Source: Agrobacterium vitis | Lineage (GTDB): Bacteria > Pseudomonadota > Alphaproteobacteria > Rhizobiales > Rhizobiaceae | Direction: 5' to 3' | Assembly (NCBI RefSeq): GCF_037039395.1 | Contig: NZ_CP146242.1 | Location: 2,801,001-2,865,000 of the forward strand | DNA: 64,000 nucleotides | Part shown: positions 21,552-32,692 of the stretch, piece by piece | How positions within the stretch are numbered: position 1 is the stretch's first letter | How the letters are laid out: each line of letters opens with the position of its first letter | Position numbers and translations under genes: made by a program | Notes under the pieces: model-generated | What the model was told of the DNA's origin: nothing | The model's database searches: none | What the model saw: only the letters and a program-made list of their open reading frames with translations

Positions 21552-22498
21552 TGGTCATGCTGGGAAGAACTGCAAACGGCCTCTACTGGATGTTCCGCTA
21601 TATCGAGAGGGCTGAAAACATTGCGCGTCTGGTGGATGCGGGGCTGCGCGTCTCGCTGACCCGTTCGGGTGCCACCGACGACGACTGGACCGGCGTGCTG
21701 CAAAGCGCCGACGTGCTGGATATTTTCCTGGAAGCCCATCCGAAAGTAACGGCGGCTGATGCCATCGACTTTCTGCTGCGCGACACGGCCAATCCGTCCA
21801 GCGTGATGTCCTGCATCGACAGCGCCCGCAACAATGCCCGCATGGTGCGCACCGCGCTGACCCGGGAAACCTGGGAAGCCACTAACGAATGCTGGATCGA
21901 GCTGAAACAGCTTCTGTCACGCAGGCTGAAATCCGCCGACCTGCCCGAAACCATCGATACGGTGAAACGGCGGGCAGGGCTGATCCGTGGCGCCTTTCAT
22001 GGCTCGATGCTGCGCAACGAGATCTATAATTTTGCCCGGATCGGCACATTCATCGAGCGGGCCGATAATACCAGCCGCATTCTCGATGTGAAATATTATG
22101 TGCTGCTGCCCTCGGTAAACCAGGTCGGGTCATCGCTGGACAATATCCAGTGGGAATCGATCCTGCGCTCGGTTTCGGCGCATCGGTCTTACCGCTGGGT
22201 CTATGACGGCGACTATCTTGCTGCCAATATTGCCGACTTCCTGATTATCAACGGTCAGATGCCGCGGTCTCTGGCCTATTGCTATGAGAAGATCGTCAGC
22301 AATCTCGCCTATATCGGCAAGGAATATGGCGAGCGGCTGCCCGCCCATGAAACAGCCGATAGCATTCGTGCTTCGCTGCGCTCCAGCAATATTACCCGGA
22401 TCATGGATCAGGGCCTGCACGAGTTTCTCGATAGTTTCATTTCCCGCAACAACCGGCTGGGGCATGAGATTAACGAGGGCTACCGATTCTACAGTTGA
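21551..22498 (+). CDS. Alpha-E domain (DUF403) protein
   Basis: A 315-residue all-helical alpha-E protein, the constant partner of circularly permuted ATP-grasp enzymes. The N-terminus MLGRTANGLYWMFRYIERAE is diagnostic. The start overlaps the ATP-grasp stop by one base, so the two are translationally coupled. The role is unknown, but the gene triplet is thought to make or modify a peptide-like compound. It is followed after 14 bases by the transglutaminase gene. Confidence 0.92.
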   Translation: MVMLGRTANGLYWMFRYIERAENIARLVDAGLRVSLTRSGATDDDWTGVLQSADVLDIFLEAHPKVTAADAIDFLLRDTANPSSVMSCIDSARNNARMVRTALTRETWEATNECWIELKQLLSRRLKSADLPETIDTVKRRAGLIRGAFHGSMLRNEIYNFARIGTFIERADNTSRILDVKYYVLLPSVNQVGSSLDNIQWESILRSVSAHRSYRWVYDGDYLAANIADFLIINGQMPRSLAYCYEKIVSNLAYIGKEYGERLPAHETADSIRASLRSSNITRIMDQGLHEFLDSFISRNNRLGHEINEGYRFYS

Positions 22499-22512
22499 GC
22501 GGGGCACAAGCG

Positions 22513-23337
22513 ATGCGTCTGAAAATCAATCATGTGACGGAATATAGCTATGACGAGCCGGTGCAGTTCTCGCTCCAGCGGCTCAGGCTGACCCCGATCG
22601 AAAATCCCGGACTGCACGTCGTATCCTGGACGATCGTGGTGGACGGCGCCAATGTCGAGGCCGGGTTCAACGACCAGTTCGGCAATCACACTCATCTGGT
22701 GTCCTTTGAAGGGGATGCCAAGTCCGTGCGGATCGTTGCCTCAGGCGAGGTGACGACCGAGGATCGCGCCGGCGTATTTGGCGCCCATACCGGCTATGTG
22801 CCGCTTTGGCTCTACCTGCGCGATACGCCACGCACCAAGGCGGGAAAGCTGGTGCGCGATCTGGTCAAAAGCCTGACGGGTGATAATGAACTGGCCAGAA
22901 TGCACGACCTGATGGCCCGCGTGCATGAACAGGTGCGTTACGAGACGGGCGCAACCACGACGGAGACGACGGCTGAGCAGGCATTGGAGGCGGGGACAGG
23001 CGTTTGCCAGGACCACGCCCATGTAATGATTTCCGCAGCACGGCTGATGAACCTGCCCGCCCGCTATATTTCCGGCTATCTGATGATGGATGGGGTTGAG
23101 GAGCAGACGGCAACCCATGCTTGGGCCGAAATCCACCTGCCATCGCTTGGCTGGGTCGGCTTCGATGCCGCTAATGATGTCTGCCCGGACGCCCGCTACG
23201 TGCGCCTCGCCTCCGGCCTTTGCTACGCCGACGCAGCACCGGTTTCCGGCATGCGTATCGGCTTGGCAGGCGAGGACATGTCCGTAACGGTCAGCGTCGC
23301 GGAAACCGGTCAAAGCCAGTCGCAGAGCCAGGGGTGA
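22513..23337 (+). CDS. Transglutaminase-like cysteine peptidase family protein
   Basis: A 274-residue protein with an N-terminal beta domain (MRLKINHVTEYSYDEPVQFS) and a transglutaminase core. The catalytic triad is visible: Cys in GTGVCQDHAHVMI, His in THAWAEIHLP and Asp in GFDAANDVCP. It is the third member of the ATP-grasp/alpha-E/transglutaminase operon. The start at 22513 is the ATG; the ORF can be extended to a TTG inside the previous gene. The proteasome-type protease that often closes this operon is not found here. Confidence 0.92.
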   Translation: MRLKINHVTEYSYDEPVQFSLQRLRLTPIENPGLHVVSWTIVVDGANVEAGFNDQFGNHTHLVSFEGDAKSVRIVASGEVTTEDRAGVFGAHTGYVPLWLYLRDTPRTKAGKLVRDLVKSLTGDNELARMHDLMARVHEQVRYETGATTTETTAEQALEAGTGVCQDHAHVMISAARLMNLPARYISGYLMMDGVEEQTATHAWAEIHLPSLGWVGFDAANDVCPDARYVRLASGLCYADAAPVSGMRIGLAGEDMSVTVSVAETGQSQSQSQG

Positions 23338-23407
23338 AGGTAGGAAGCGATGTATATTGCGGTTTTGGGCGGCGCCTGTGTTGGTCGGGAAACCCTCTCC
23401 GCTCTGT

Positions 23408-23438
23408 AACCGGGATTGGTAGGAAACCAATTCCGGTT
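23408..23438. terminator. Hairpin after the ATP-grasp operon
   Basis: AACCGGGATTGGT pairs with ACCAATTCCGGTT (one G-U type mismatch) over a five-base loop, 70 bases beyond the transglutaminase stop and ahead of the next gene. Reasonable as an operon terminator, although the T-tract is poor. Confidence 0.5.
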
Positions 23439-23483
23439 CTGTCCGTTGTGCTGTAGAGTTCTTGGCAAATCAGGACAGGCGCG

Positions 23484-23952
23484 ATGTTGTTTGGACAATC
23501 GATCTTTCAATCCGTCGTCGAGCGGCTTTCCAACGAGGAGGCGGAAAAGGCCGAACTTGAGGGTGAGGCCAATCACTACCGCGTCTCCGGATTGAACACC
23601 GGCTTCGTTCAGGAAAACAGCCACATGCCGCAAGCCGCCGCTGCATGGGCGCAAGAGCAATATCTCGAGTTGATGCCGGATGAGGAACCAGTTTCCGAGG
23701 CGGAATTGGCCAGTGAAGACGTGGCGCCCCCCGAAATGCCTGATTATCTGAAGCGTCTTGCACCGGAGGAGGTCGCGGAGGATCTGGGTATTGCTGATAA
23801 TGACGAGGCTTCAAGCTTGAAAGCGAAGCGGAGAGCGTTTGCGCAGCTCGAATCACCCGGACCTGGTTCATCCATTATTTGCGGAGGCCGCGCATACCCG
23901 GATGACCATTGCCAATCAATTGATAGATCAGGCTCTGAAAACAAGAATTTGA
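23484..23952 (+). pseudogene. J-domain-like protein gene with a frameshift near its 3' end
   Basis: The frame from 23484 (MLFGQSIFQSVVERLSNEEA) encodes an acidic protein up to LKAKRRAFAQL, after which it becomes nonsense (ESPGPGSS...) to a stop at 23987. In the next frame, from 23851, the sequence continues sensibly as NHPDLVHPLFAEAAHTRM and then TIANQLIDQALKTRI, with a stop at 23950-23952. The HPD signature and the arrangement resemble the end of a J-domain. One extra base near 23850 explains the break. It is either a recent mutation or a sequencing error. No partner chaperone gene is nearby. Confidence 0.6.
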
Positions 23953-24076
23953 AAACCAAAGTGTCGGGAAAAGGCTCTTGTGTGTAGAGCCGGACAGGCA
24001 ATAGCCGAAATTTTCATGTAAAAAATGAAACCGGCATTTCGAAAGATATACGATCTCGCCGGATTTCAATGCGATA

Positions 24077-24110
24077 AACTCAGGCCCGGAAATTACACCG
24101 GACCTGAGTT
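24077..24110. terminator. Bidirectional terminator hairpin
   Basis: AACTCAGGCCCGG (24077-24089) pairs with CCGGACCTGAGTT (24098-24110) with one mismatch. It lies between a plus-strand gene and the converging MarR gene. Confidence 0.7.
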
Positions 24111-24121
24111 ATGATCGATCA

Positions 24122-24595
24122 TTACTCAGAAATCGACTTCAGCAACTCAATGAGCTGATCGCGTTTTTCCGATCCGCCGAGGCGACCCACGAATTTCTCC
24201 TCATGCTCACGCCACTTCGGCAAAAGCTCTTCGAGAAATGCCGAGCCCTTGGACGTCAGGTGAAGAAAATAGACGCGGCGGTCCGTATCCGAGCGACGAC
24301 GCTCGATAAGGCCCTTGTCTTCCAATCCATCGACGATCGCGACGAAATTGGCCCGCTGAATTGCCAGCGTGGAGGCTACGTCGCTTTGCTTCATTCCGGA
24401 ATTACCGGCGATGATCGACAGAACGGAAAAATCAGCAGGCCTGATATCGTGGCCGCCGAGTACATCCTGAAAGTCCTGCAGAATGGCCAGTTGCGCACGT
24501 CTTACGCGAAAGCCAAGTGAATAGGCTAGCCCGGAATAATCGACAACCCCTTGTCGTACGCCGGCGCCCTCACCAATAAAATGTTGATTGCTCAT
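24122..24595 (-). CDS. MarR family transcriptional regulator
   Basis: A 157-residue winged-helix regulator. The HTH region is GMKQSDVASTLAIQRANFVA and the wing is IERRRSDTDRRVYFLHLTSK, the classic MarR signature. No divergent target gene is adjacent: the region upstream leads to a tRNA. The ligand is unknown. The slightly longer N-terminus (YSLGFRVRRAQLAILQDF) forms the dimerisation helices. Confidence 0.9.
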   Translation of the reverse strand: MSNQHFIGEGAGVRQGVVDYSGLAYSLGFRVRRAQLAILQDFQDVLGGHDIRPADFSVLSIIAGNSGMKQSDVASTLAIQRANFVAIVDGLEDKGLIERRRSDTDRRVYFLHLTSKGSAFLEELLPKWREHEEKFVGRLGGSEKRDQLIELLKSISE

Positions 24596-24888
24596 GCCCC
24601 TAGACTACAAACCTCCGTGACCAATGCCCGATCCCACAATCAGGCATGTTCCGACTCTCAATAACAAATTATCTTTACCCTTCTTAACATATAGGTACAA
24701 GATAATTCTTCAATTGAATGATTTCCCCCTGAAACAATATAGGAGTAAAACAGCTATATCCACAATCTCTTATTTTAGGGGCGCCTTTTTCGGTGAGCAG
24801 GCTTCTGTGGATCGAACACAAATTCACCATTGATGCGGCCGTCAGACTAGGCTATGTACCGCTTCGCACCACAAGTGCTCATCTGAAC

Positions 24889-24965
24889 GCACCCGTAGCT
24901 CAGCTGGATAGAGTGTTGGATTCCGATTCCAAAGGTCACAGGTTCGAATCCTGTCGGGTGCGCCA
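24889..24965 (+). tRNA. tRNA-Arg (anticodon CCG)
   Basis: A complete cloverleaf: acceptor GCACCCG with CGGGTGC, D-arm AGCTCAGCTGGATAGAGT, anticodon stem TTGGA/TCCAA around loop TTCCGAT (anticodon CCG), T-arm ACAGGTTCGAATCCTGT, discriminator G and an encoded CCA. It marks the left edge of the accessory region (Mu-like remnant plus type VI island). Confidence 0.95.
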
Positions 24966-25163
24966 TTTTTTACTAGGTAAGTATTTGTTTTTTATTGCGA
25001 AATAGCGATTCACGAAAATTCCATCCCCCGTAATTTCCCCCAATAACAGTCGGATTGCCTTGGATTTATTCGGATGAGCGAAGTCGAAACAAAACTCCCA
25101 CAAGTGTTTACTCCTGAGGACGTCGCAAATGTGGCGCGGCGCGACCTTTCGGACAGATTGGCA

Positions 25164-26300
25164 TTAGCTTCTGGACACGAAAACATAATCGCCACTCGGC
25201 TCGCGAACGTCTATCCCCTCAACATACCGAAAGCCTTGTGCCGCTCGGAAGTGTCCTCCATAGCCCGTTTTGAGGGAGATTGCGGCGGCGCTTCGAGCCT
25301 TAGCACTTCCATAGAGCGACACTGAGACCTGAGCCCAGAGGGGATGACGGCGAAGGGATTTGATAAGACCTGGGTGAGACGTGTTGATGAGGGTCGGTAG
25401 CGGCAGCGCATAGGGATTTTGCCCCCTACGCCATGCGGCGCAAACGGTATTGAGAAACCTTAGACCGATTCCCGCTCCTTGCCATTCCGGCATGACGACG
25501 AGGCGGCAGGCTCGGCCCTCCGTCAAGCCAGGGCGGGTTGACATCGCAAGATGGGCAACGGGCTGACCATCCACGAAGCCAACATAGCAGCGCGCTGCAA
25601 TGGCGTTCGGAACTTTCAGATAATGATGCGGCTCAAAATATCGCCACCATTCCCAACCGGTCTGGCGGATTTCCAGGGTGATCGGAGGGCGTCGCCGATG
25701 ACACCTCCCGGTGAACACACCTGTCGCCGTGGCGTAGATCCAATCGGGGTCGAGCCAGTCGATAATATCGTAATGACAAGACAGCAGGACGGCGCGGCCT
25801 TTGGTACGCCGCCACGCCTTGCCGAAGGCCAGCGCGCCAATCCGGGCGATCTGCCGGTCCACCACACTGGTGAACTCGTCAATGACGATCTCCTGCGGCT
25901 GATCGCAGACGATCCGGGCAAGGTCTGCCTGGAATTTCTCGCCGTTAGAAAGAACGTGGTAGGGGCGCAGCCAAGACGGAACCGAACCAAGCCCGACCGA
26001 AGCCAGAGCGGTAGTCGCATCATCAAAATCGCCACCATGGGCAATCACATCGATAATCGGTCGATCTTGCGGCCAGTCCAGGCTGGCCATGCGGTCGGCC
26101 TCGAACACTTGCCGACCGAGCGAGGTTTTGCCTGATCCTGAAGGCCCGACGATCAGGCCGACGCTCCAGTCCATGTCGTCAATCTCAAGGTCTGCCGTCA
26201 GTTCGAAACGGCTGGCATCTTCGACGTTGAACAGAGATTTGACCCGTGCGGCCCGGTAGCTGTCAAAGTCCGGGCAGGAATTGATGATATCAAGCCTCAT
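25164..26300 (-). CDS. ABC-ATPase/GNAT fusion at the mom position of a Mu-like prophage
   Basis: A 378-residue fusion. Residues about 45-215 are an ABC-type ATPase: Walker A GPSGSGKTS, signature-like LSNGEKFQADLARIV, Walker B EIVIDEFTSVVDR and H-loop LLSCHYDIID. Residues about 240-350 are a GNAT fold with RLVVMPEWQGAGIGLRFLN. No membrane partner exists, so this is not a transporter. It is the last gene of com, 59-codon ORF, fusion, with four-base overlap to the ORF. In phage Mu the com operon ends with mom, a GNAT-fold enzyme that modifies adenine in phage DNA. A role in DNA base modification is therefore inferred. Confidence 0.75.
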   Translation of the reverse strand: MRLDIINSCPDFDSYRAARVKSLFNVEDASRFELTADLEIDDMDWSVGLIVGPSGSGKTSLGRQVFEADRMASLDWPQDRPIIDVIAHGGDFDDATTALASVGLGSVPSWLRPYHVLSNGEKFQADLARIVCDQPQEIVIDEFTSVVDRQIARIGALAFGKAWRRTKGRAVLLSCHYDIIDWLDPDWIYATATGVFTGRCHRRRPPITLEIRQTGWEWWRYFEPHHYLKVPNAIAARCYVGFVDGQPVAHLAMSTRPGLTEGRACRLVVMPEWQGAGIGLRFLNTVCAAWRRGQNPYALPLPTLINTSHPGLIKSLRRHPLWAQVSVSLYGSAKARSAAAISLKTGYGGHFRAAQGFRYVEGIDVREPSGDYVFVSRS

Positions 26301-26476
26301 GTGACAACCACCTTGATCTTGGATTTCTTAATGTCCGCAAGAGCCCCGTAAAGCCGCTCCTGGGCATCTTCATCCTCGCAAACGAGGATTACACCGTACT
26401 GCTCGCGGTAACGCAGACCGGATGGAGCCTTTTGGGCTTGAGGCGGCAAAGGAGGCAGGTCAGTTTCAGTTGGCAT
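26297..26476 (-). CDS. 59-residue protein between com and the ABC/GNAT gene
   Basis: A 59-codon ORF begins MPTETDLPPLPPQAQKAPSG and ends DIKKSKIKVVVT. It overlaps the end of com by 11 bases and the start of the ABC/GNAT gene by 4 (ATGA), so all three are coupled. The C-terminal part (YGVILVCEDEDAQERLYGAL) looks like a small folded domain. I do not recognise the family. The location suggests a partner of the modification enzyme. Confidence 0.65.
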   Translation of the reverse strand: MPTETDLPPLPPQAQKAPSGLRYREQYGVILVCEDEDAQERLYGALADIKKSKIKVVVT

Positions 26477-26645
26477 TATAAGCCGGTTCTCCGTTTGGCC
26501 GCTCCTGGCGATCCGGTTCGGGCTCGGCTGGCCTCAGGTGATTGATAGTGCCGCAACGGCGGCACTTGATTTCGATGTCCCCGGCGAATGCCCGCCCTGC
26601 CTTGAACAAAAGGGCGGTGCATGTGCCGCAACGGATATTTTTCAT
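26466..26645 (-). CDS. com: Com-like zinc-finger translational regulator
   Basis: A 59-residue protein beginning MKNIRCGTCTALLFKAG and then EIKCRRCGTIN. The spacing CxxC...CxxC and the words IRC, LLFKA, IEI.C.RC match the Com protein of phage Mu, which binds its own mRNA and switches on translation of mom. It lies next to the prophage end, as in Mu, and its reading frame overlaps the next gene. A structured leader (26652-26715) precedes the start codon. Confidence 0.85.
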   Translation of the reverse strand: MKNIRCGTCTALLFKAGRAFAGDIEIKCRRCGTINHLRPAEPEPDRQERPNGEPAYNAN

Positions 26646-26651
26646 TTTCTA

Positions 26652-26715
26652 ACGCTCAAGATTCCGATTATGACCGCGCTCTGCCTTCGGGCAGAACGGG
26701 TGGACAGTTGAGCGT
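26652..26715 (-). promoter_or_regulatory. Structured leader upstream of com
   Basis: An outer stem ACGCTCAA (26652-26659) pairs with TTGAGCGT (26708-26715), enclosing a tight hairpin TCTGCC-TTCG-GGCAGA (26680-26695, plus-strand reading). In the minus-strand transcript the outer stem ends only about six bases before the com ATG, in place of a normal ribosome-binding site. It may control translation of com and the downstream genes. Confidence 0.5.
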
Positions 26716-26796
26716 GCTTGATGTCGGACGGGAGTGGTAGCCAAACTTACACCCGTCTTCCGGGGCTTTGCCCCGGCACCCGGCAGCTATGCGAGA

Positions 26797-27021
26797 TCAG
26801 AACTGTGCATAGAGATCGATCACGGCCTGCGGGCATTCCGGCCAGCTGGCGTCGGCCAGATAGTTTGCCTCCATATCTTCGGCCAACTCCGCGAACCGAC
26901 CGCGCATGGCCGTCACCCATTCGATGGACTGGCTGGCGGCGGCAACGATGGCCTTTTCTTCTTCAGTGCGGTTGGTCGCCGTTTTGGCACTGATGGCGGC
27001 GGTCATCGATGTGACGTTCAT
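26797..27021 (-). CDS. Small Mu-like prophage tail-region protein
   Basis: A 74-codon ORF (MNVTSMTAAISAKTATNRTE...) overlapping the stop of the gp47 fragment by ATGA. The rest, SIEWVTAMRGRFAELAEDME, is helical and acidic. It resembles short proteins encoded near the tail-fibre end of Mu-like prophages, but I cannot name a family. It lies between the baseplate and com, as the fibre genes do in Mu. Confidence 0.5.
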   Translation of the reverse strand: MNVTSMTAAISAKTATNRTEEEKAIVAAASQSIEWVTAMRGRFAELAEDMEANYLADASWPECPQAVIDLYAQF

Positions 27022-27779
27022 TTGCGCATCAGCGGATAGATGTTGATTTTGCCCGGCTCCGGGCGCACCACGGCCACGTCGATGATATCGGGATCGACCG
27101 CCAGGGCATGTTCGCGGTAGCCGTTTTTCGGGCCGGTCTTGGCGATGGTGAAGAGAGCATTGACCACCCGCAGCCGTAACCGCTCGGCGTCCTCGATGTC
27201 GGAGCCGCCAGAAACCACCGTGATATTGGCGGCACTGGTGACATAGGCCACGGGGTCGAGGATATCCTTGACCGTGCCGACAGCCAAACCGTTCCAGGCA
27301 GCCCCGGTGGCCTCAGCGGTAGCGGCCACATCGCCGGTCAGTGCGCCAGCCGGAATGATCAGATCGGCGTCTGTGGCAAAGGTCACGGCATTGCCGGAGG
27401 CGACCCGCGTACCTTTCGCAATGGCCGTCTCGACATCGCGAACCGCCGAAAGCGTAAAGCGCAATGTTGTGCTGGCAGGCTGCGCCAGAAGCCGGAAGGC
27501 TGAAACGGACGCGCCGCGATTTTCCAGATGCACACCCTCGGCAAAGACGGCGGTATTTTGCAGCGTGGCGGTTTGCGCGGCCTCGGCCAGCAGCGAATGG
27601 GCGTAGGCCAGCACCTCAATGAGGTACATTTCCGTTTGCGCCGGATAGAGCGTGCGCCCGGTGATCTCCTCGAACTGGGCCTTGTAGGTCGCCTTCAGCA
27701 CTGACGGGTCACGCTCAAAAAAGGACGGCGCACCATTGGCGCGGAGATCCTCAATTGTGCGCTTGACGGGATCAGCCAT
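27018..27779 (-). pseudogene. Baseplate J-like protein (Mu gp47), C-terminally truncated
   Basis: Baseplate wedge protein of the gpJ/gp47 family: DRTIEDLRANGAPSFFERDP-like N-terminus, LYPAQTEMYLIEVLAYAHSL, then DIEDAERLRLRVVNALFT and GPKNGYREHALAVDPDI. The family normally runs to about 350 residues; this frame stops at 253, just after VVRPEPGKINIYPL, within the conserved baseplate domain. The lost end and the absent gp48 gene show a deletion in the prophage tail module. Confidence 0.75.
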
Positions 27780-28953
27780 AGGTGACCTCCGTCATCAGCA
27801 ACTCGTCCATCACGCTTTCGATAGGACGCCAGGAGACCTGCGTCTTGAAATGCGAATAGGCCACCGCCTTGTTGTGCCGCTCAAGACCGGCCTGATCGAC
27901 CGGCTTACCGTCAGCGGCGAATGAGGCGGCGCTCTCGTCAACGCCCGTTTCCGGCATATCCATCGCCCCGAAAGACACGATTTTGGGCTGTGCGGCCAAA
28001 AGATCGCGCAGCGCCTGGGCGACCGGCACGGCGGCTTCGCCAGCCGCAAAGGACACGGTGGTTTCACCGGGAACCGAGTTCAGAACGGCGACGAGCCTTT
28101 CTTTCGAGGCAGGCAACAGCTTGCCATCGGTAACGAGACCTTCCGCAAATGACACATTTGCAGCATGGGCGATTTTGGCCTCGCTCTCTTTGAGCCGCGC
28201 CTCACGGGCAGCAAAATCGGCTTCGCGGGCGGCGAAGACGGCATTGGTCTGGACCACAACAGGCTCCTTTTTCTCTGGTGGTTGGGGTGCAAGCGGCGCG
28301 GCAAAAGCCGGGCGGCTGGCGGGGGGCTGGATTTCGGCTTCAGACAGCCAGTCGATCTGGAAACCGGGCAGAGCCTTGTCGGCGTCTTCCATGCCGAACT
28401 TCTCGATCACGAATTCACGGATGCTGCGAAACAGGCTGGCAGCTTCTTCAAAGCCGCGCTCCCCGAAGTCGGCGCTGACGGTGACGCTGCCCTCAGGCGC
28501 GGAAAACTGCACGTTCTTCAGGCCAGATACAGCCGGAGCCGCGCCGCCGAGAAAACCGATATGGCGCGGATACCATGTGCCGGGAACAGGATTGGCCGAG
28601 GCTTCAGGCCGGAAGAATGAAAGGCTGACCTTCTTATAACGCCCGGCCTTCACCGCTTCGCTGAATGCCGGATCGATCTCGCCGACCGTCGCATAAAGCC
28701 GTTGGCTGCTTGCGTCATAGTCGAAGCTTTGCGCCCAGCCGTAAGCAGGGGCGTCCGTGGCCGGATGACCGACGACAACAGGAACAGGCGCGGTTTCGGG
28801 ATCGTAGGCATCAGCCGCCGCCTTCAGGTCAGCGGCACTATAGGTAATCGACGTGCCTTCCATCGGCTGAAATGTGCCGGGGCGGAAAACCTCAATGCGG
28901 GCGGTGGCGCTGGCCGGGGCGGTTTTGGCGGGTATGGCAGAAGCGGTGGTCAT
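27772..28953 (-). CDS. Mu gpI-like prohead protease/scaffold, chimeric C-terminus
   Basis: The phage protease family of Mu (gpI): an N-terminal protease part (IEVFRPGTFQPMEGTSITYS, VPVVVGHPATDAPAYGW) and a coiled scaffold part (FAAREADFAAREARLKESEA). The start at 28953 (MTTASAIPAKTAP) is preferred. The normal ending DQAGLERHNKAVAY is followed by an alien tail, KTQVSWRPIESVMDELLMTE, which then runs into the gp47 fragment. This tail probably belongs to a tail/baseplate gene, so a deletion has fused head and tail modules in frame. Confidence 0.75.
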   Translation of the reverse strand: MTTASAIPAKTAPASATARIEVFRPGTFQPMEGTSITYSAADLKAAADAYDPETAPVPVVVGHPATDAPAYGWAQSFDYDASSQRLYATVGEIDPAFSEAVKAGRYKKVSLSFFRPEASANPVPGTWYPRHIGFLGGAAPAVSGLKNVQFSAPEGSVTVSADFGERGFEEAASLFRSIREFVIEKFGMEDADKALPGFQIDWLSEAEIQPPASRPAFAAPLAPQPPEKKEPVVVQTNAVFAAREADFAAREARLKESEAKIAHAANVSFAEGLVTDGKLLPASKERLVAVLNSVPGETTVSFAAGEAAVPVAQALRDLLAAQPKIVSFGAMDMPETGVDESAASFAADGKPVDQAGLERHNKAVAYSHFKTQVSWRPIESVMDELLMTEVTYG

Positions 28954-29006
28954 CTCGGCTCCAGAAATCATCTGAAGCCACCATGCCGCCTTGCCCAAAA
29001 CAAAAA

Positions 29007-29219: not shown

Positions 29220-31703
29220 TTATGTTGAAATAATAGCACCTGCCTTCACCATGGCGTCAATCGCCGACTGCACTTCGGTGTAAAGATCGGTCAGCAAATT
29301 CTCCGCATCAATCTCCACTATAAGGGCATAGCGGCAGACTGGAGGGTGATCCCCAAAGTTCTTAAGGTACGACTTTTCCTTCCACCAGCCAGCTACAGGG
29401 TAGACTGCAAGAAGATTCCGCCGCGCCAAATCTGATGCTTTGCAAGTCAGTTGATCAATCTGAAGTGAACCAACATCCCGCCGCTTCGGGCCAAAGTCCC
29501 AACCATCATTTTCCTCGCTCTGGAACATCATCTGATCATCCTCCTCGTCAACCAGATTAGAAATCCGACCTAAGAATGCCCCTTCAAGTTCATCTGCCCG
29601 ATTCAACTTAAAGCGGAGATTATGAGAGGCATAGCGAAACTTCGATCCTCGCGCAGGCTCGGAAGGGTTTGGTTCAATGAATGTGCTCAACGTAACCCGG
29701 AGCGTAACATTGGCATCCGCCAAAGCGCGCAAAGCCTCAAGCGGCCATGGCAGCGGGAATAGCCGCAACTCGTTATGGATTGCTCCATTTTTTTTATCAT
29801 TGAGCCGATAAGGGGAGATCGTGTCTTCAACAATCAGCGTCAGCGCATTTGATGCGCTATGCCTCGCACGAGCCAAGTCCGGTACACCGTAGCCATACCG
29901 GCGAAACAATACCTCTAATTGACCTTTCTTCTTCCAGTCACTCACGTGACTTTTCATTTGCTTTGTCCAGCGTGCAGACGACACAAACAAGCCGCGAATA
30001 GTTTCCGGCCAAAGATCCGGATATTCCGTCCACAATTCCGTTACTTGTTTCGCGGCCAGTGCGGTTGCAGCGCTGGTATCACAGGTTAATGCGAATGATC
30101 GAAGCGGATAATTATGATGTGTCGTCAACAAACCCAGATCTTCATGGCGCATAGGTGGCCCAGGCGGCTGATTAATCCAGTTGCCTCCTTCCAACACGAC
30201 ATCAGGCTTTATAGGCCATGTCGATGACCAGCTTGCGGTGCGAGAGGATGGTGAGAGGTCACCGAAAGACGCTAGCGGAGCTCCTGTAATTCCTGATGGT
30301 AAAACTACCTTTTCAGTATATGCGCCGATTGCAATAGGGTTCCATGCCTGCGCTGGTGACTCGAGTTCGTGGTCTGGGTGATCACAACGTTCAAGATAAT
30401 TACCGATCCCAAATGAACGGTTATCGGTATTGCCGGCAGAAATCAAAACTAAACGTTTTTGCTTATGTTGCCCAGAAATCCCTGATGCCAGTTGGTCCAT
30501 AGACGTGGACCACGAGGTGGGCGCGCCATCATGTGGACTGTCTTGATCAGTTGTCACCGCCATGGTGAATGTACGCCTCCTGTGAGGCTTACACTCGACG
30601 GCATTAACTGCATTTTCCGTGATTGTTCCCAACAGATGGTGTGGGTTGCTATCTGCATCCGGCAATAATTTAGCCGACTCCAACCTGTTATGAATGTCTA
30701 TTGGCATAGTCTGCCGTAGAGCAGATGACAGATCTCCCATCAAGGCGAGGCCTGCTAAGGCAGTGCCATGCCCTTTTACATCTTCAAGCCCCCATTCTGG
30801 CTTCGCTGCATATCTATCTTCTCTCGAAAATGCAGGCTGTAACAAGGGGTGTGAAAGGCTTATTCCCGTGTCCAACAATGTCACATAACCCGGGTTTACA
30901 TTTGGAAAATACCGGCATCGTTGCTGTAATTCATCAACCCATTCCCACTGCTCCTCAGGGTCCAGACTATCGAAGTCATTGTTTAATGTCGCTGGGACCG
31001 CAAGAGCACGAACTACGGCCAACTTTCGGACGGCGTGCAATAAGGCGTGGCGCGTAGCAATTGCGATCACCACCACATCATTAGGAAAGTGCAAACGATC
31101 CTTGGCAACCGCAATGTCGAATTGCTCTACGGAGCGAATAAATCGCTCAGCATTTTCTGGATCAAGCCAAATCTCCCACGCAAACTTTTCATTTCCATTA
31201 GGAAATCGTTCAAGCGGGCTGCGCCATAAGGCAATAAGTTCGGCCTCCACAATAGCGTCTAAACTTTGGACTAGATCCGCATTCTTTGGGCGCCCAGGTA
31301 CGTTTTTCCCGTCCTTGCTAACCCTGTCTTCGGTATTCTGAGTGCGAAACTCATCAACTTTTTTTCGTAATTTTTCTACGCCTGCTGCTGAAGCAAATAC
31401 CGTTGCATGGTCGCTATTATTTTCAACGTCACTTTTTTTATAACGCAATAGAGTGAGGCCGCTAGCGTCAAGACTTTTCGTTGTCAGCGCCTCATTAGCG
31501 CGTCCAGAAATCTCCAGATACAAACCGGGAAGATTTTGCCTATCTATGTCCGGCAAATTATCGATTTCACGAAGTAGACTCTGGGCATGCCTTTCCCGAT
31601 CTTGTACGTCACTCGGCTTTTTGCTGCTGCCCCCCGGTTTTGCGCGAAATGGCTTTGCCCGACCGAGATTTTTTAGGTGAAAATGCCTCAGATTCCTTAC
31701 CAA
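29220..31703 (-). CDS. ietS: IetS-like subtilisin-family serine protease
   Basis: An 827-residue S8-type protease. The triad is visible: Asp in YVTLLDTGISLSHPLL (about residue 275), His in VKGHGTALAGLALMG (about 309) and Ser in CDTSAATALAAKQ (about 550). No signal peptide is present, so it acts in the cytoplasm. The start is a TTG at 31703 by frame; the true start is uncertain. It overlaps the frameshifted tail of the AAA-ATPase. A AAA-ATPase/cytoplasmic subtilase pair matches IetAS, first described as a stability/toxin-antitoxin pair of an Agrobacterium Ti plasmid and also listed among anti-phage systems. It is inserted between prophage genes gpG and gpI. Confidence 0.8.
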   Translation of the reverse strand: MVRNLRHFHLKNLGRAKPFRAKPGGSSKKPSDVQDRERHAQSLLREIDNLPDIDRQNLPGLYLEISGRANEALTTKSLDASGLTLLRYKKSDVENNSDHATVFASAAGVEKLRKKVDEFRTQNTEDRVSKDGKNVPGRPKNADLVQSLDAIVEAELIALWRSPLERFPNGNEKFAWEIWLDPENAERFIRSVEQFDIAVAKDRLHFPNDVVVIAIATRHALLHAVRKLAVVRALAVPATLNNDFDSLDPEEQWEWVDELQQRCRYFPNVNPGYVTLLDTGISLSHPLLQPAFSREDRYAAKPEWGLEDVKGHGTALAGLALMGDLSSALRQTMPIDIHNRLESAKLLPDADSNPHHLLGTITENAVNAVECKPHRRRTFTMAVTTDQDSPHDGAPTSWSTSMDQLASGISGQHKQKRLVLISAGNTDNRSFGIGNYLERCDHPDHELESPAQAWNPIAIGAYTEKVVLPSGITGAPLASFGDLSPSSRTASWSSTWPIKPDVVLEGGNWINQPPGPPMRHEDLGLLTTHHNYPLRSFALTCDTSAATALAAKQVTELWTEYPDLWPETIRGLFVSSARWTKQMKSHVSDWKKKGQLEVLFRRYGYGVPDLARARHSASNALTLIVEDTISPYRLNDKKNGAIHNELRLFPLPWPLEALRALADANVTLRVTLSTFIEPNPSEPARGSKFRYASHNLRFKLNRADELEGAFLGRISNLVDEEDDQMMFQSEENDGWDFGPKRRDVGSLQIDQLTCKASDLARRNLLAVYPVAGWWKEKSYLKNFGDHPPVCRYALIVEIDAENLLTDLYTEVQSAIDAMVKAGAIIST

Positions 31704-32692
31704 TGTCGTCTACCCCTAGCCCCTGTAATGAGCGACGACGCTGAAATGCATTTATCAAATCTTGTGTCGCTATCGTCTCTGACCCTGACAAGACAGAGCG
31801 TCGGGCTGCATCTTCAGACTCCGGACACGATGTCAGCAGTTGACAGCCCCCCGGCGGTCTTTGTCACTTTTGTCCAGTCAATTTGTTTTATTGAAAAGCC
31901 AATTAGTCGGCGCTGTAATGCGGTCTTAATAGCATCGGCATCCGGCAATTCATAAGGCAATACGAGGTCAAAACGCCGCAAAATAGCCCTATCCAATATT
32001 TGAGGCAGATTCGTTGTTGCAACAACAATTGATGGACCTGTATCGTCATCGAGAAATTGAAGAAATGAATTAAGGATTCGGCGGGCTTCTCCCACGTCAT
32101 TTTCCGAACCGCGTGAAGCTGCCAAAGCGTCAATTTCGTCGAAAAGATAAACGCCGCGCCTCGTTTTAATCGCGTCAAAAACAACCTTAAGCTTCTGGGC
32201 TGTTTCGCCCATAAACTTGGTAATCAGCCCGTGTAACAGCACAGTAAAAAGTGGCAACTGGAGCTGTCCAGCAAGCGCCGCCGCGCTCATCGTTTTTCCC
32301 GTTCCCGGCGGTCCGGAAAGAATAATGCGTCGTCTCGGCTTTAGTCCCTTGGCTTCAAGCTTATCGCGCAACCTTATCTCATTGACAATTTGCTCAAGTT
32401 CTTCCTCAATATGATGGGGGAGGATGAGGTCGTTGAGCCTAGCGGTCGGATAGCTTGCGGCCAAAAATTCAGCTAAATCGCCGCGCGGTGCAGCGATAGG
32501 AGTCGGTTCAAATTTTCTGATTTCCTTTGGCTTTTGTCCAGCGTCGGCCCACTGACGCAATTGTTCAGCTAAACGGGTATGACCTTTTTGGGCCTCCGCA
32601 GCCGCAAGCTGAATCGCCAGATCGTAAAAACGATCTGCGTTTCCTTCAGCATGGCTCTTTATAAGCCCTATGAGCTGCTGCGCGGATGCCAT
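31609..32692 (-). pseudogene. ietA: IetA-like AAA-ATPase, frameshifted near the 3' end
   Basis: The frame from 32692 (MASAQQLIGLIKSHAEGNAD) encodes a AAA+ ATPase: Walker A SGPPGTGKTMSAAAL, pore region LLHGLITKFMGET, Walker B GVYLFDEIDAL, sensor 1 VVATTNLPQILD and arginine finger RRFDLVLPYE. It stops at 31814 after GGLSTADIVSGV. In the next frame the homology continues as SEDAARRSVLSGSETIATQD and DLINAFQRRRS to a stop at 31609, so a one-base slip near 31820-31830 has cut off the C-terminal helical lid end. If IetA is the antitoxin, loss of function should matter. Confidence 0.7.

What the first reader, a model, noticed from the sequence alone, without database searches (positions are those of the whole stretch)
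25164..26645. com - small ORF - ABC-ATPase/GNAT fusion: a probable alternative to the Mu mom DNA-modification module
Seen: a Com-like zinc-finger gene, a 59-codon ORF and an ABC-ATPase fused to a GNAT domain overlap one another (11 and 4 bases) at the end of a Mu-ordered gene set. Known: in phage Mu, com controls mom, and Mom is a GNAT-fold enzyme that modifies adenines in phage DNA to evade restriction. Inferred: the fusion replaces mom, with an ATPase domain that could move along or remodel DNA, and the small ORF as a new subunit. I cannot tell whether this variant has been described.
Basis: partly seen in the sequence, partly recalled or inferred. Interest (0 to 1): 0.85.

Follow-up and report, generated by a model that had tools for sequence, protein, structure and literature searches.

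The report
Com-controlled ABC-GNAT stand-in for Mom
A decayed Mu-like virus in this bacterial genome carries, where phage Mu keeps its DNA-disguising gene mom, a different enzyme operon that is still preceded by Mu's own control gene and by hairpins of the kind that controller binds, so it is very probably another way to disguise phage DNA.

Summary
In detail: com, a 59-codon ORF and an ABC-GNAT fusion overlap by 11 and 4 bases. The fusion belongs to a large phage family, phrog_11143, whose kind was already predicted in print to acylate a DNA base (Iyer 2013, known to me only through a passage of Iyer 2021). The small ORF is not new: it is the free-standing form of the C-terminal domain of ParB-like proteins that precede the fusion in other phages.

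Not met in my literature searches: (1) a tandem RNA hairpin across the com/small-ORF junction that fits the published Com motif, co-varies strongly, and is found by a model trained on com loci without the fusion; (2) two Porphyromonas Mu-like phages, 94% identical over 19 kb, in which Mom and small ORF-fusion-formyltransferase occupy one slot; (3) com is followed by a known or predicted DNA-modification gene in 23 of 25 com-seeded viral loci and in 6 of 6 above-cut-off loci of a genome sample.

So "replaces mom" is well supported by context. It is not a Mom homologue by sequence, and no modified base has been shown. The window copy is a deleted remnant without the usual formyltransferase.

The parts
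26466..26645 (-). com: 59-aa zinc-ribbon translational regulator
   Evidence: PF10122 2.8e-15; phrog_6417 2.5e-13 and phrog_13819 'gpCom' 1.1e-6
26468..26552 (-). Com RNA element (two tandem hairpins) across the com 3' end and the small-ORF start
   Evidence: covariance model trained on com loci without a called fusion: 51.0 bits, E 1.1e-9; 6.6e-11
26499..26511 (-). hairpin 2, UCGC-CAGGA-GCGG; holds the published Com motif CC(N)2-3GAG
   Evidence: motif from PMC6483171
26521..26533 (-). hairpin 1, GGC-CAGCCGA-GCC (weaker; loop longer than the published motif)
   Evidence: sequence; position computed from the match start
26297..26476 (-). small ORF, 59 codons: stand-alone form of the C-terminal domain of ParB-like proteins
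   Evidence: phrog_28816 4.3e-7; same domain at the C-terminus of ParB-like proteins
25164..26300 (-). ABC-ATPase/GNAT fusion, 378 aa
   Evidence: phrog_11143 5.2e-143 over residues 2-362; model pLDDT 88.4
25689..26300 (-). ABC ATPase domain, residues 1-204; invariant K58, S118, G120, D141, E142, H176
25221..25688 (-). GNAT domain, residues 205-360, with acyl-CoA loop Q274-G275-x-G277-x-G279
26797..27779 (-). phage context: 74-aa ORF and truncated baseplate J protein
   Evidence: PF04865 4.4e-33
27772..28998 (-). phage context: Mu-I-like head maturation protease
   Evidence: phrog_976 1.8e-106

Best explanation
The trio is what remains of a Com-controlled DNA-modification operon that fills the place of mom in Mu-like phages. 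Late in infection Com binds the tandem hairpins at the com/small-ORF junction and opens translation of the small ORF and, through the 4-base stop-start overlap, of the fusion. The small ORF acts as an adaptor that docks the enzyme or guides it to DNA; elsewhere it is the tail of a ParB-like protein. The ABC part uses ATP to clamp or distort DNA, and the GNAT part moves an acyl group from an acyl-CoA to an amino group of a base, which hides the phage DNA from restriction. In most relatives a following formyltransferase then formylates the adduct. Shown here by computation: the gene order, the conserved RNA element, intact ATPase and acyl-CoA motifs, and exchange with Mom and methyltransferases. 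Inferred: Com binding at this locus, DNA as substrate, the chemistry, and the roles of ATP and of the adaptor.
For: Com lies directly upstream of the small ORF in 109 of 166 loci. RNA element: 53 sequences from com loci without a called fusion give 93.7% paired cells and 73 two-sided changes against 15.7 in shuffles. The model from these finds 88 of 100 com-ABC-GNAT sources at E<=0.01; the 93 matches listed at E<=1 give 95.0% paired and 130 two-sided changes against 22.5. Of 57 fusion loci without a called com, one matches clearly (L150, whose com frame looks interrupted) and one at E 0.26. Synonymous recoding leaves 7.1 expected against 64 of 92 observed. The published Com loop motif in a hairpin occurs in 79 of 99 ABC-GNAT, 32 of 35 Mom and 17 of 20 other com loci, against 161 of 5137 random windows. 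Porphyromonas phages L177 and L178 are 93.9% identical over 18,980 bp and 92.1% over 784 bp up to the slot, then Mom or small ORF-fusion-formyltransferase, then a similar 92-bp end. In 25 com-seeded loci the next gene is C5-MTase in 13, ABC-GNAT in 6, N6/N4-MTase in 2, D12-MTase in 2, unassigned in 2 (representatives by Pfam). Walker A, signature, Walker B, H-loop and QGxGxG residues are invariant in 53 sequences. Fusion dN/dS is 0.09 between the two copies in this genome.
Against: No biochemical evidence exists here. The GNAT domain shows no profile link to Mom and sits among ordinary acetyl-CoA N-acetyltransferases by fold, which fits protein or small-molecule substrates as well. The Aeromonas phage AsFcp_1 record matches both Mom and the fusion, so the two are not strictly redundant. 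The local minimum-free-energy fold of the window RNA does not favour the hairpins (z 0.18). Model R1 also contains conserved com codons, so its scores are not structure alone; the alignment counted is fitted to the model, and one slid version there still pairs 60.8% of cells. This copy lacks the formyltransferase and lies in a deleted prophage, so it may do only part of the chemistry or nothing.
Confidence: 0.75

Rival explanations
1. The fusion acetylates a protein (host RNA polymerase, a restriction enzyme or a defence protein) rather than DNA; Com merely times late expression.
For: The fold neighbours of the GNAT domain include N-alpha, polyamine and histone acetyltransferases. A phage GNAT that acetylates host RNA polymerase is described (passage in PMC7824862).
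Against: The 17 assigned com partners other than the fusion in the com-seeded loci are all DNA methyltransferases. Mom and the module trade places in near-isogenic phages. Relatives neighbour ParB-like genes.
Confidence: 0.15
2. The module modifies DNA by acylation alone, and the formyltransferase is a separate accessory with its own substrate.
For: 25 com-linked loci lack it, 13 of them with room on the contig, including both copies here and the A. vitis relative L015; the fusion has been under purifying selection.
Against: It follows the fusion in 125 of 166 loci, in com-linked, ParB-linked and other arrangements alike.
Confidence: 0.35
3. The window copy is a dead relic and the motif conservation is only inherited.
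For: The prophage is truncated and lacks the formyltransferase.
Against: All three ORFs are intact in both genomic copies. Window against L001: small ORF 5 synonymous and 0 non-synonymous changes, fusion dN/dS 0.09. Selection may however date from before the decay.
Confidence: 0.4

Closest known systems
com-mom operon of phage Mu
   Same: Com gene directly upstream with overlapping reading frames; Com-motif hairpin at the junction (also present in Mu); position at the right end of Mu-like phages; a GNAT-fold enzyme
   Different: the enzyme is an ABC-GNAT fusion without detectable Mom homology, with an added small adaptor ORF and usually a formyltransferase; the acyl-CoA loop is canonical
GNAT plus ABC-ATPase predicted base-acylating system (Iyer 2013 as described in Iyer 2021; Tenacibaculum phage pT24)
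   Same: same family: pT24 matches the fusion at 32.8% identity over 84%
   Different: the passages read mention neither Com nor its RNA element, nor exchange with Mom; the 2013 paper itself could not be read, so its contexts are unknown to me
ParB-like / ABC-GNAT / formyltransferase operons of Gordonia phages
   Same: small domain, 4-nt overlap, fusion, then formyltransferase
   Different: the small domain is fused to a ParB-like N-terminal domain and no com was called; the Gordonia record Axumite has none of the three Mu markers tested
com followed by DNA methyltransferases (C5, N6/N4, D12)
   Same: same controller and RNA element, same junction
   Different: a classical methyltransferase in place of the fusion

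Membership tests
Mom family (PF25680) | sequence match to the Mom profile | tested here: not met
   no PF25680 match listed up to E=1 for the fusion, whereas Mu Mom scores 2.4e-75; hhalign of 25 GNAT parts against 38 Moms: probability 0.2%
Mom family (PF25680) | GNAT fold | tested here: met
Mom family (PF25680) | modifies adenine in DNA | not testable with these tools
   needs nucleoside mass spectrometry
Com-controlled modification operon | com gene directly upstream and overlapping | tested here: met
   com directly upstream in 109 of 166 loci
Com-controlled modification operon | Com-motif hairpin at the junction | tested here: met
   window E 1.1e-9; motif CCAGGAG in a hairpin; covariation
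Com-controlled modification operon | Com binds it and activates translation | not testable with these tools
   binding of Mu mom RNA and selected RNAs by Haemophilus sputorum Com is published (PMC6483171), not for this locus
phrog_11143 (ABC-GNAT phage family) | full-length profile match | tested here: met
   5.2e-143, residues 2-362 of 378, profile 2-351 of 357
ABC ATPases | Walker A, signature, Walker B and H-loop residues | tested here: met
GNAT superfamily | acyl-CoA loop (Q/R)xxGx(G/A) | tested here: met
   Q274, G275, G277, G279 invariant in 53 sequences; PF00583 above its cut-off

The most novel reading that the evidence does not exclude
Com is a general gatekeeper of a plug-in slot for anti-restriction DNA modification: one RNA-binding protein and one co-varying tandem hairpin drive interchangeable cassettes (Mom, C5-, N6/N4- and D12-methyltransferases, and ABC-GNAT). 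The ABC-GNAT plus formyltransferase cassette makes a base adduct not yet known in any DNA: an ATP-dependent acylation, possibly a glycinamide-like group, that a PurN-like enzyme then formylates.
Probability: 0.25. Interest if true: 0.87.

Novelty: new variant of a known kind. Interest (0 to 1): 0.62.

Why it matters
Mom is the classic unusual phage DNA modification, and its regulator Com is usually treated as Mom's own. If Com is instead a shared switch in front of exchangeable modification enzymes, its RNA element becomes a genomic search tool: whatever lies behind it is a candidate anti-restriction DNA modification. It turns an unassigned protein family into a directly testable prediction, with natural swap pairs as controls. 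The family is large: 7,862 of the 7,999 proteins scored passed E<=0.001, though only the best 120 were listed and some of the rest may be other ABC or GNAT proteins.

Tried and rejected
Mom homology of the GNAT part: I noticed a shared His-Tyr stretch (HHYL against HYS), but profile comparison found no relation, so I do not use it. Mom's solved structure (8bv8) is not among the fold matches shown; that shows nothing either way. Mu-likeness was tested in 48 records that I picked from the 166 loci (45 viral contigs, 3 named phages): PF09299 in 18 at E<=0.001 (17 over the cut-off), Gam in 10 (9 over), Mu portal PF06074 in 31; 32 of 48 have at least one. The other 16 include com-linked phages. PF25680 in the window's own genome gave nothing, but the control also rang nowhere, so it is not evidence. 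PADLOC gave only a short P-loop match to mad3 for the fusion. Rfam has no match for the element. Formyltransferase remnants were sought in window 22001-28000, L001 and L015: none in the window, only weak scattered pieces (E 0.11 and 0.026) in the other two. A quick tree of 103 fusions needs 13 changes of the com label against 32.5 in shuffles: com is inherited but gained or lost repeatedly; 38 of 100 inner branches are open.

Rows dropped or set by hand: of 169 loci, L096 and L104 (fusion at a contig edge, no complete ORF called) and L002 (the window again) do not count in the 166; L003-L008 (ABC false positives) were never in. L096 and L104 stayed under 'other' in the counts, were left out of training, and were counted by hand as ABC-GNAT. 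L212 was left out of training because its anchor was wrong. Training set A1 includes three loci without an assigned partner (L299, L304, L220; L220 was brought in by a Mom search). Some loci lack upstream sequence, so 'no com' can mean a contig edge. The 166 loci hold near-duplicates (the same phage in two collections). The hairpin pattern was drawn after looking at sequences; the published motif and the class-split model are the more independent tests. In one search two further PF10122 matches lie below the cut-off (L315, L316); I saw no com gene or modification gene there on the strand read.

Literature: ten searches of an open-access library listed no paper that I recognised, from titles and starts of abstracts, as linking Com with ABC-GNAT or a Com element with genes other than mom; subscription papers are mostly missing, and Iyer 2013 was not held, so contexts such as ParB or formyltransferase may already be there. 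Seen: passages of PMC7824862, abstract and passages of PMC6483171, passages of PMC10434257, PMC4553209, PMC10853773 and PMC12839542.

Full report

THE PROPHAGE IS A REMNANT. Upstream are a truncated baseplate J protein, directly abutted by a Mu-I-like protease (phrog_976), and a neck protein. Against Agrobacterium vitis CG78 (L015), window 25283-27030 and 27023-27861 match stretches that lie 2.6 kb apart there; in the window they meet with an 8-base overlap. The trio occurs a second time in this genome, at C2:2687687. Between the two copies the fusion has dN/dS 0.09, com 5 synonymous and 1 non-synonymous change, and the small ORF 5 and 0.

THE CONSERVED MODULE. I fetched relatives from genomes (L015-L094), viral contigs (L095-L174) and named phages. 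In 166 usable loci the upstream ORF overlaps the fusion start by exactly 4 nt in 155; the small domain is directly upstream in 161 of 166. Of 31 ParB-like ORFs in all loci searched, 25 end in this domain, 24 of these at the fusion start. Com lies directly upstream in 109 of 166 and a formyltransferase follows in 125 of 166; 16 of the 41 without it end within 450 bases of the fusion. The downstream gene is PF00551 in the three members tested. The window, its second copy and L015 lack it, and no remnant was found in window 22001-28000.

EVIDENCE 1, ONE SLOT. Porphyromonas phages 015a (L177) and 011a (L178) are 93.9% identical over 18,980 bp and 92.1% over 784 bp up to the slot. Then one has Mom and the other has the small ORF, fusion and formyltransferase, and both end in a similar 92-bp stretch (82.6%). 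Neither has a called com, so this exchange is independent of Com. Among com loci, 134 pairs of a fusion locus with another com locus share some upstream DNA (one, L104 with L023, is the same phage). In several the match reaches com: L188 (Mom) with L054, 2,066 aligned bases at 76.8%; L198 (Mom) with L156, 899 at 79.1%; L287 (C5-MTase) with L099, 350 at 76.0%. In other pairs the matching stretches end some 1.6-5 kb short of com (30 of the 134 pairs were listed).

EVIDENCE 2, COM'S COMPANY. A viral scan seeded with this com alone gave 25 loci. The next gene is a C5 cytosine methyltransferase in 13, ABC-GNAT in 6, an N6/N4 methyltransferase in 2 and a D12 methyltransferase in 2; 2 are unassigned (five of these methyltransferases by Pfam, two more). 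In 385 genomes of the window's class, six PF10122 matches exceed the cut-off, in five genomes: three ABC-GNAT (two of them the window's own genome), one Mom, one D12 methyltransferase, and one C5 methyltransferase by its sequence motifs. Com precedes Mom in 40 of 103 Mom loci, Mu included, and no fetched locus holds both Mom and fusion. The whole-set totals (118 ABC-GNAT and 41 Mom of 179 com loci) reflect how loci were seeded and are not frequencies.

EVIDENCE 3, THE RNA ELEMENT. Across the com end and the next start codon lie two short hairpins with loop C..GA closed by C-G. I aligned 53 distinct sequences from com loci without a called fusion (A1): Mom, methyltransferase and three unassigned. 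Pairs: 93.7% of 412 cells standard, 73 two-sided changes against 15.7 in shuffles; slid structures reach at most 46.8%. A covariance model from these alone was run on 100 sources with fusion and com (of 116 at hand): 88 match at E<=0.01, each within 300 bases upstream of the fusion, including window 26552-26468 at 1.1e-9; four more match only at E 0.013-0.16 and eight not at all. In 57 fusion loci without a called com it found L150, whose com frame looks interrupted, and one match at E 0.26. The 93 listed matches (87 distinct) show 95.0% of 675 cells paired and 130 two-sided changes against 22.5; slid structures reach at most 60.8%. That alignment is fitted to the model, which favours the structure. 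Because the element overlaps com codons I recoded com synonymously: 64 of 92 distinct ABC-GNAT loci carry the hairpin pattern against 7.1 expected (Mom 32 of 35 against 2.7, others 16 of 21 against 1.9). I then read that in-vitro selection gave 5'-CC(N)2-3GAG-3' in a hairpin loop closed by C-G as the Com target (PMC6483171). This motif with at least two further pairs occurs in 79 of 99 ABC-GNAT, 32 of 35 Mom and 17 of 20 other com loci, in 161 of 5137 random 110-nt windows of the same loci, and in 9 of 54 stretches of 400 nt upstream of fusions without com. Mu itself carries it. Against: the predicted fold of the window RNA does not single the hairpins out (z 0.18). Rfam has no such family.

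MECHANISM. Shown by computation: operon anatomy, Com element, intact motifs, interchange with modification enzymes. Inferred: Com opens translation; the small domain is an adaptor (it replaces or is freed from a ParB-like carrier); ATP drives DNA clamping or distortion; GNAT transfers an acyl group to a base amine. The formyltransferase idea rests on recalled chemistry: PurN formylates the amine of glycinamide ribonucleotide, and an aminoacyl adduct on a base would present a similar amine. This is a guess to be tested.

WHAT IS KNOWN. Iyer 2021 states that a GNAT coupled with an ABC ATPase was earlier predicted to carry out an uncharacterised acyl modification of a DNA base, and names phage pT24; pT24 is a member here. 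So the core functional guess is not new. Mom membership was tested and not met by sequence. I therefore call this a new variant of a known kind: a Com-controlled, mom-position modification operon with a different enzyme.

LIMITS. The related loci are the best-scoring 80 per collection, hold near-duplicates, and do not represent distant members, which sit in phages without com beside ParB-like genes. AsFcp_1 matches both Mom and the fusion. Of 48 records tested, 32 carry a Mu marker. No activity has been shown for any member here.

Noticed in passing
window 29220-31703 (-) and 31814-32692 (-): IetAS-type defence pair (PADLOC IetS 1e-30, IetA 4.7e-64) as cargo inside the prophage, between the neck protein and the Mu-I-like protease; Komp_PAO1_1 (L009 2702-4831) has a large opposite-strand ORF right after its Neck1 gene.
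   Followed up: partly
L286-L309, L312, L313: Com and its RNA element also stand in front of C5, N6/N4 and D12 DNA methyltransferases, which suggests a general role for Com.
   Followed up: yes
L001 1153-2613 and window 25164-26645: Two copies of the same module about 140 kb apart in one genome, each close to a tRNA gene (window 24889-24965; L001 2801-2874).
   Followed up: partly
L011 5876-6004 (Porphyromonas phage 011a): The small ORF of this family is annotated as 'acr candidate' in Porphyromonas phage records; the conserved operon position suggests a part of the modification module instead.
   Followed up: partly
L150 7669-8004: No com ORF was called and its frame looks interrupted, while the RNA element is kept.
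   Followed up: no
Aeromonas phage AsFcp_1 (MN871440): A 221-kb phage record that matches both a Mom and an ABC-GNAT fusion.
   Followed up: no
L179 1969-3118 (Microbacterium phage Antuna): A ParB-like gene overlaps the start of a Mom-like acetyltransferase gene, which recalls the ParB-like/ABC-GNAT pair, but the small C-terminal domain was not detected there.
   Followed up: partly
L191 7761-8744: One open reading frame matches both Com and Mom, possibly a natural com-mom fusion.
   Followed up: no
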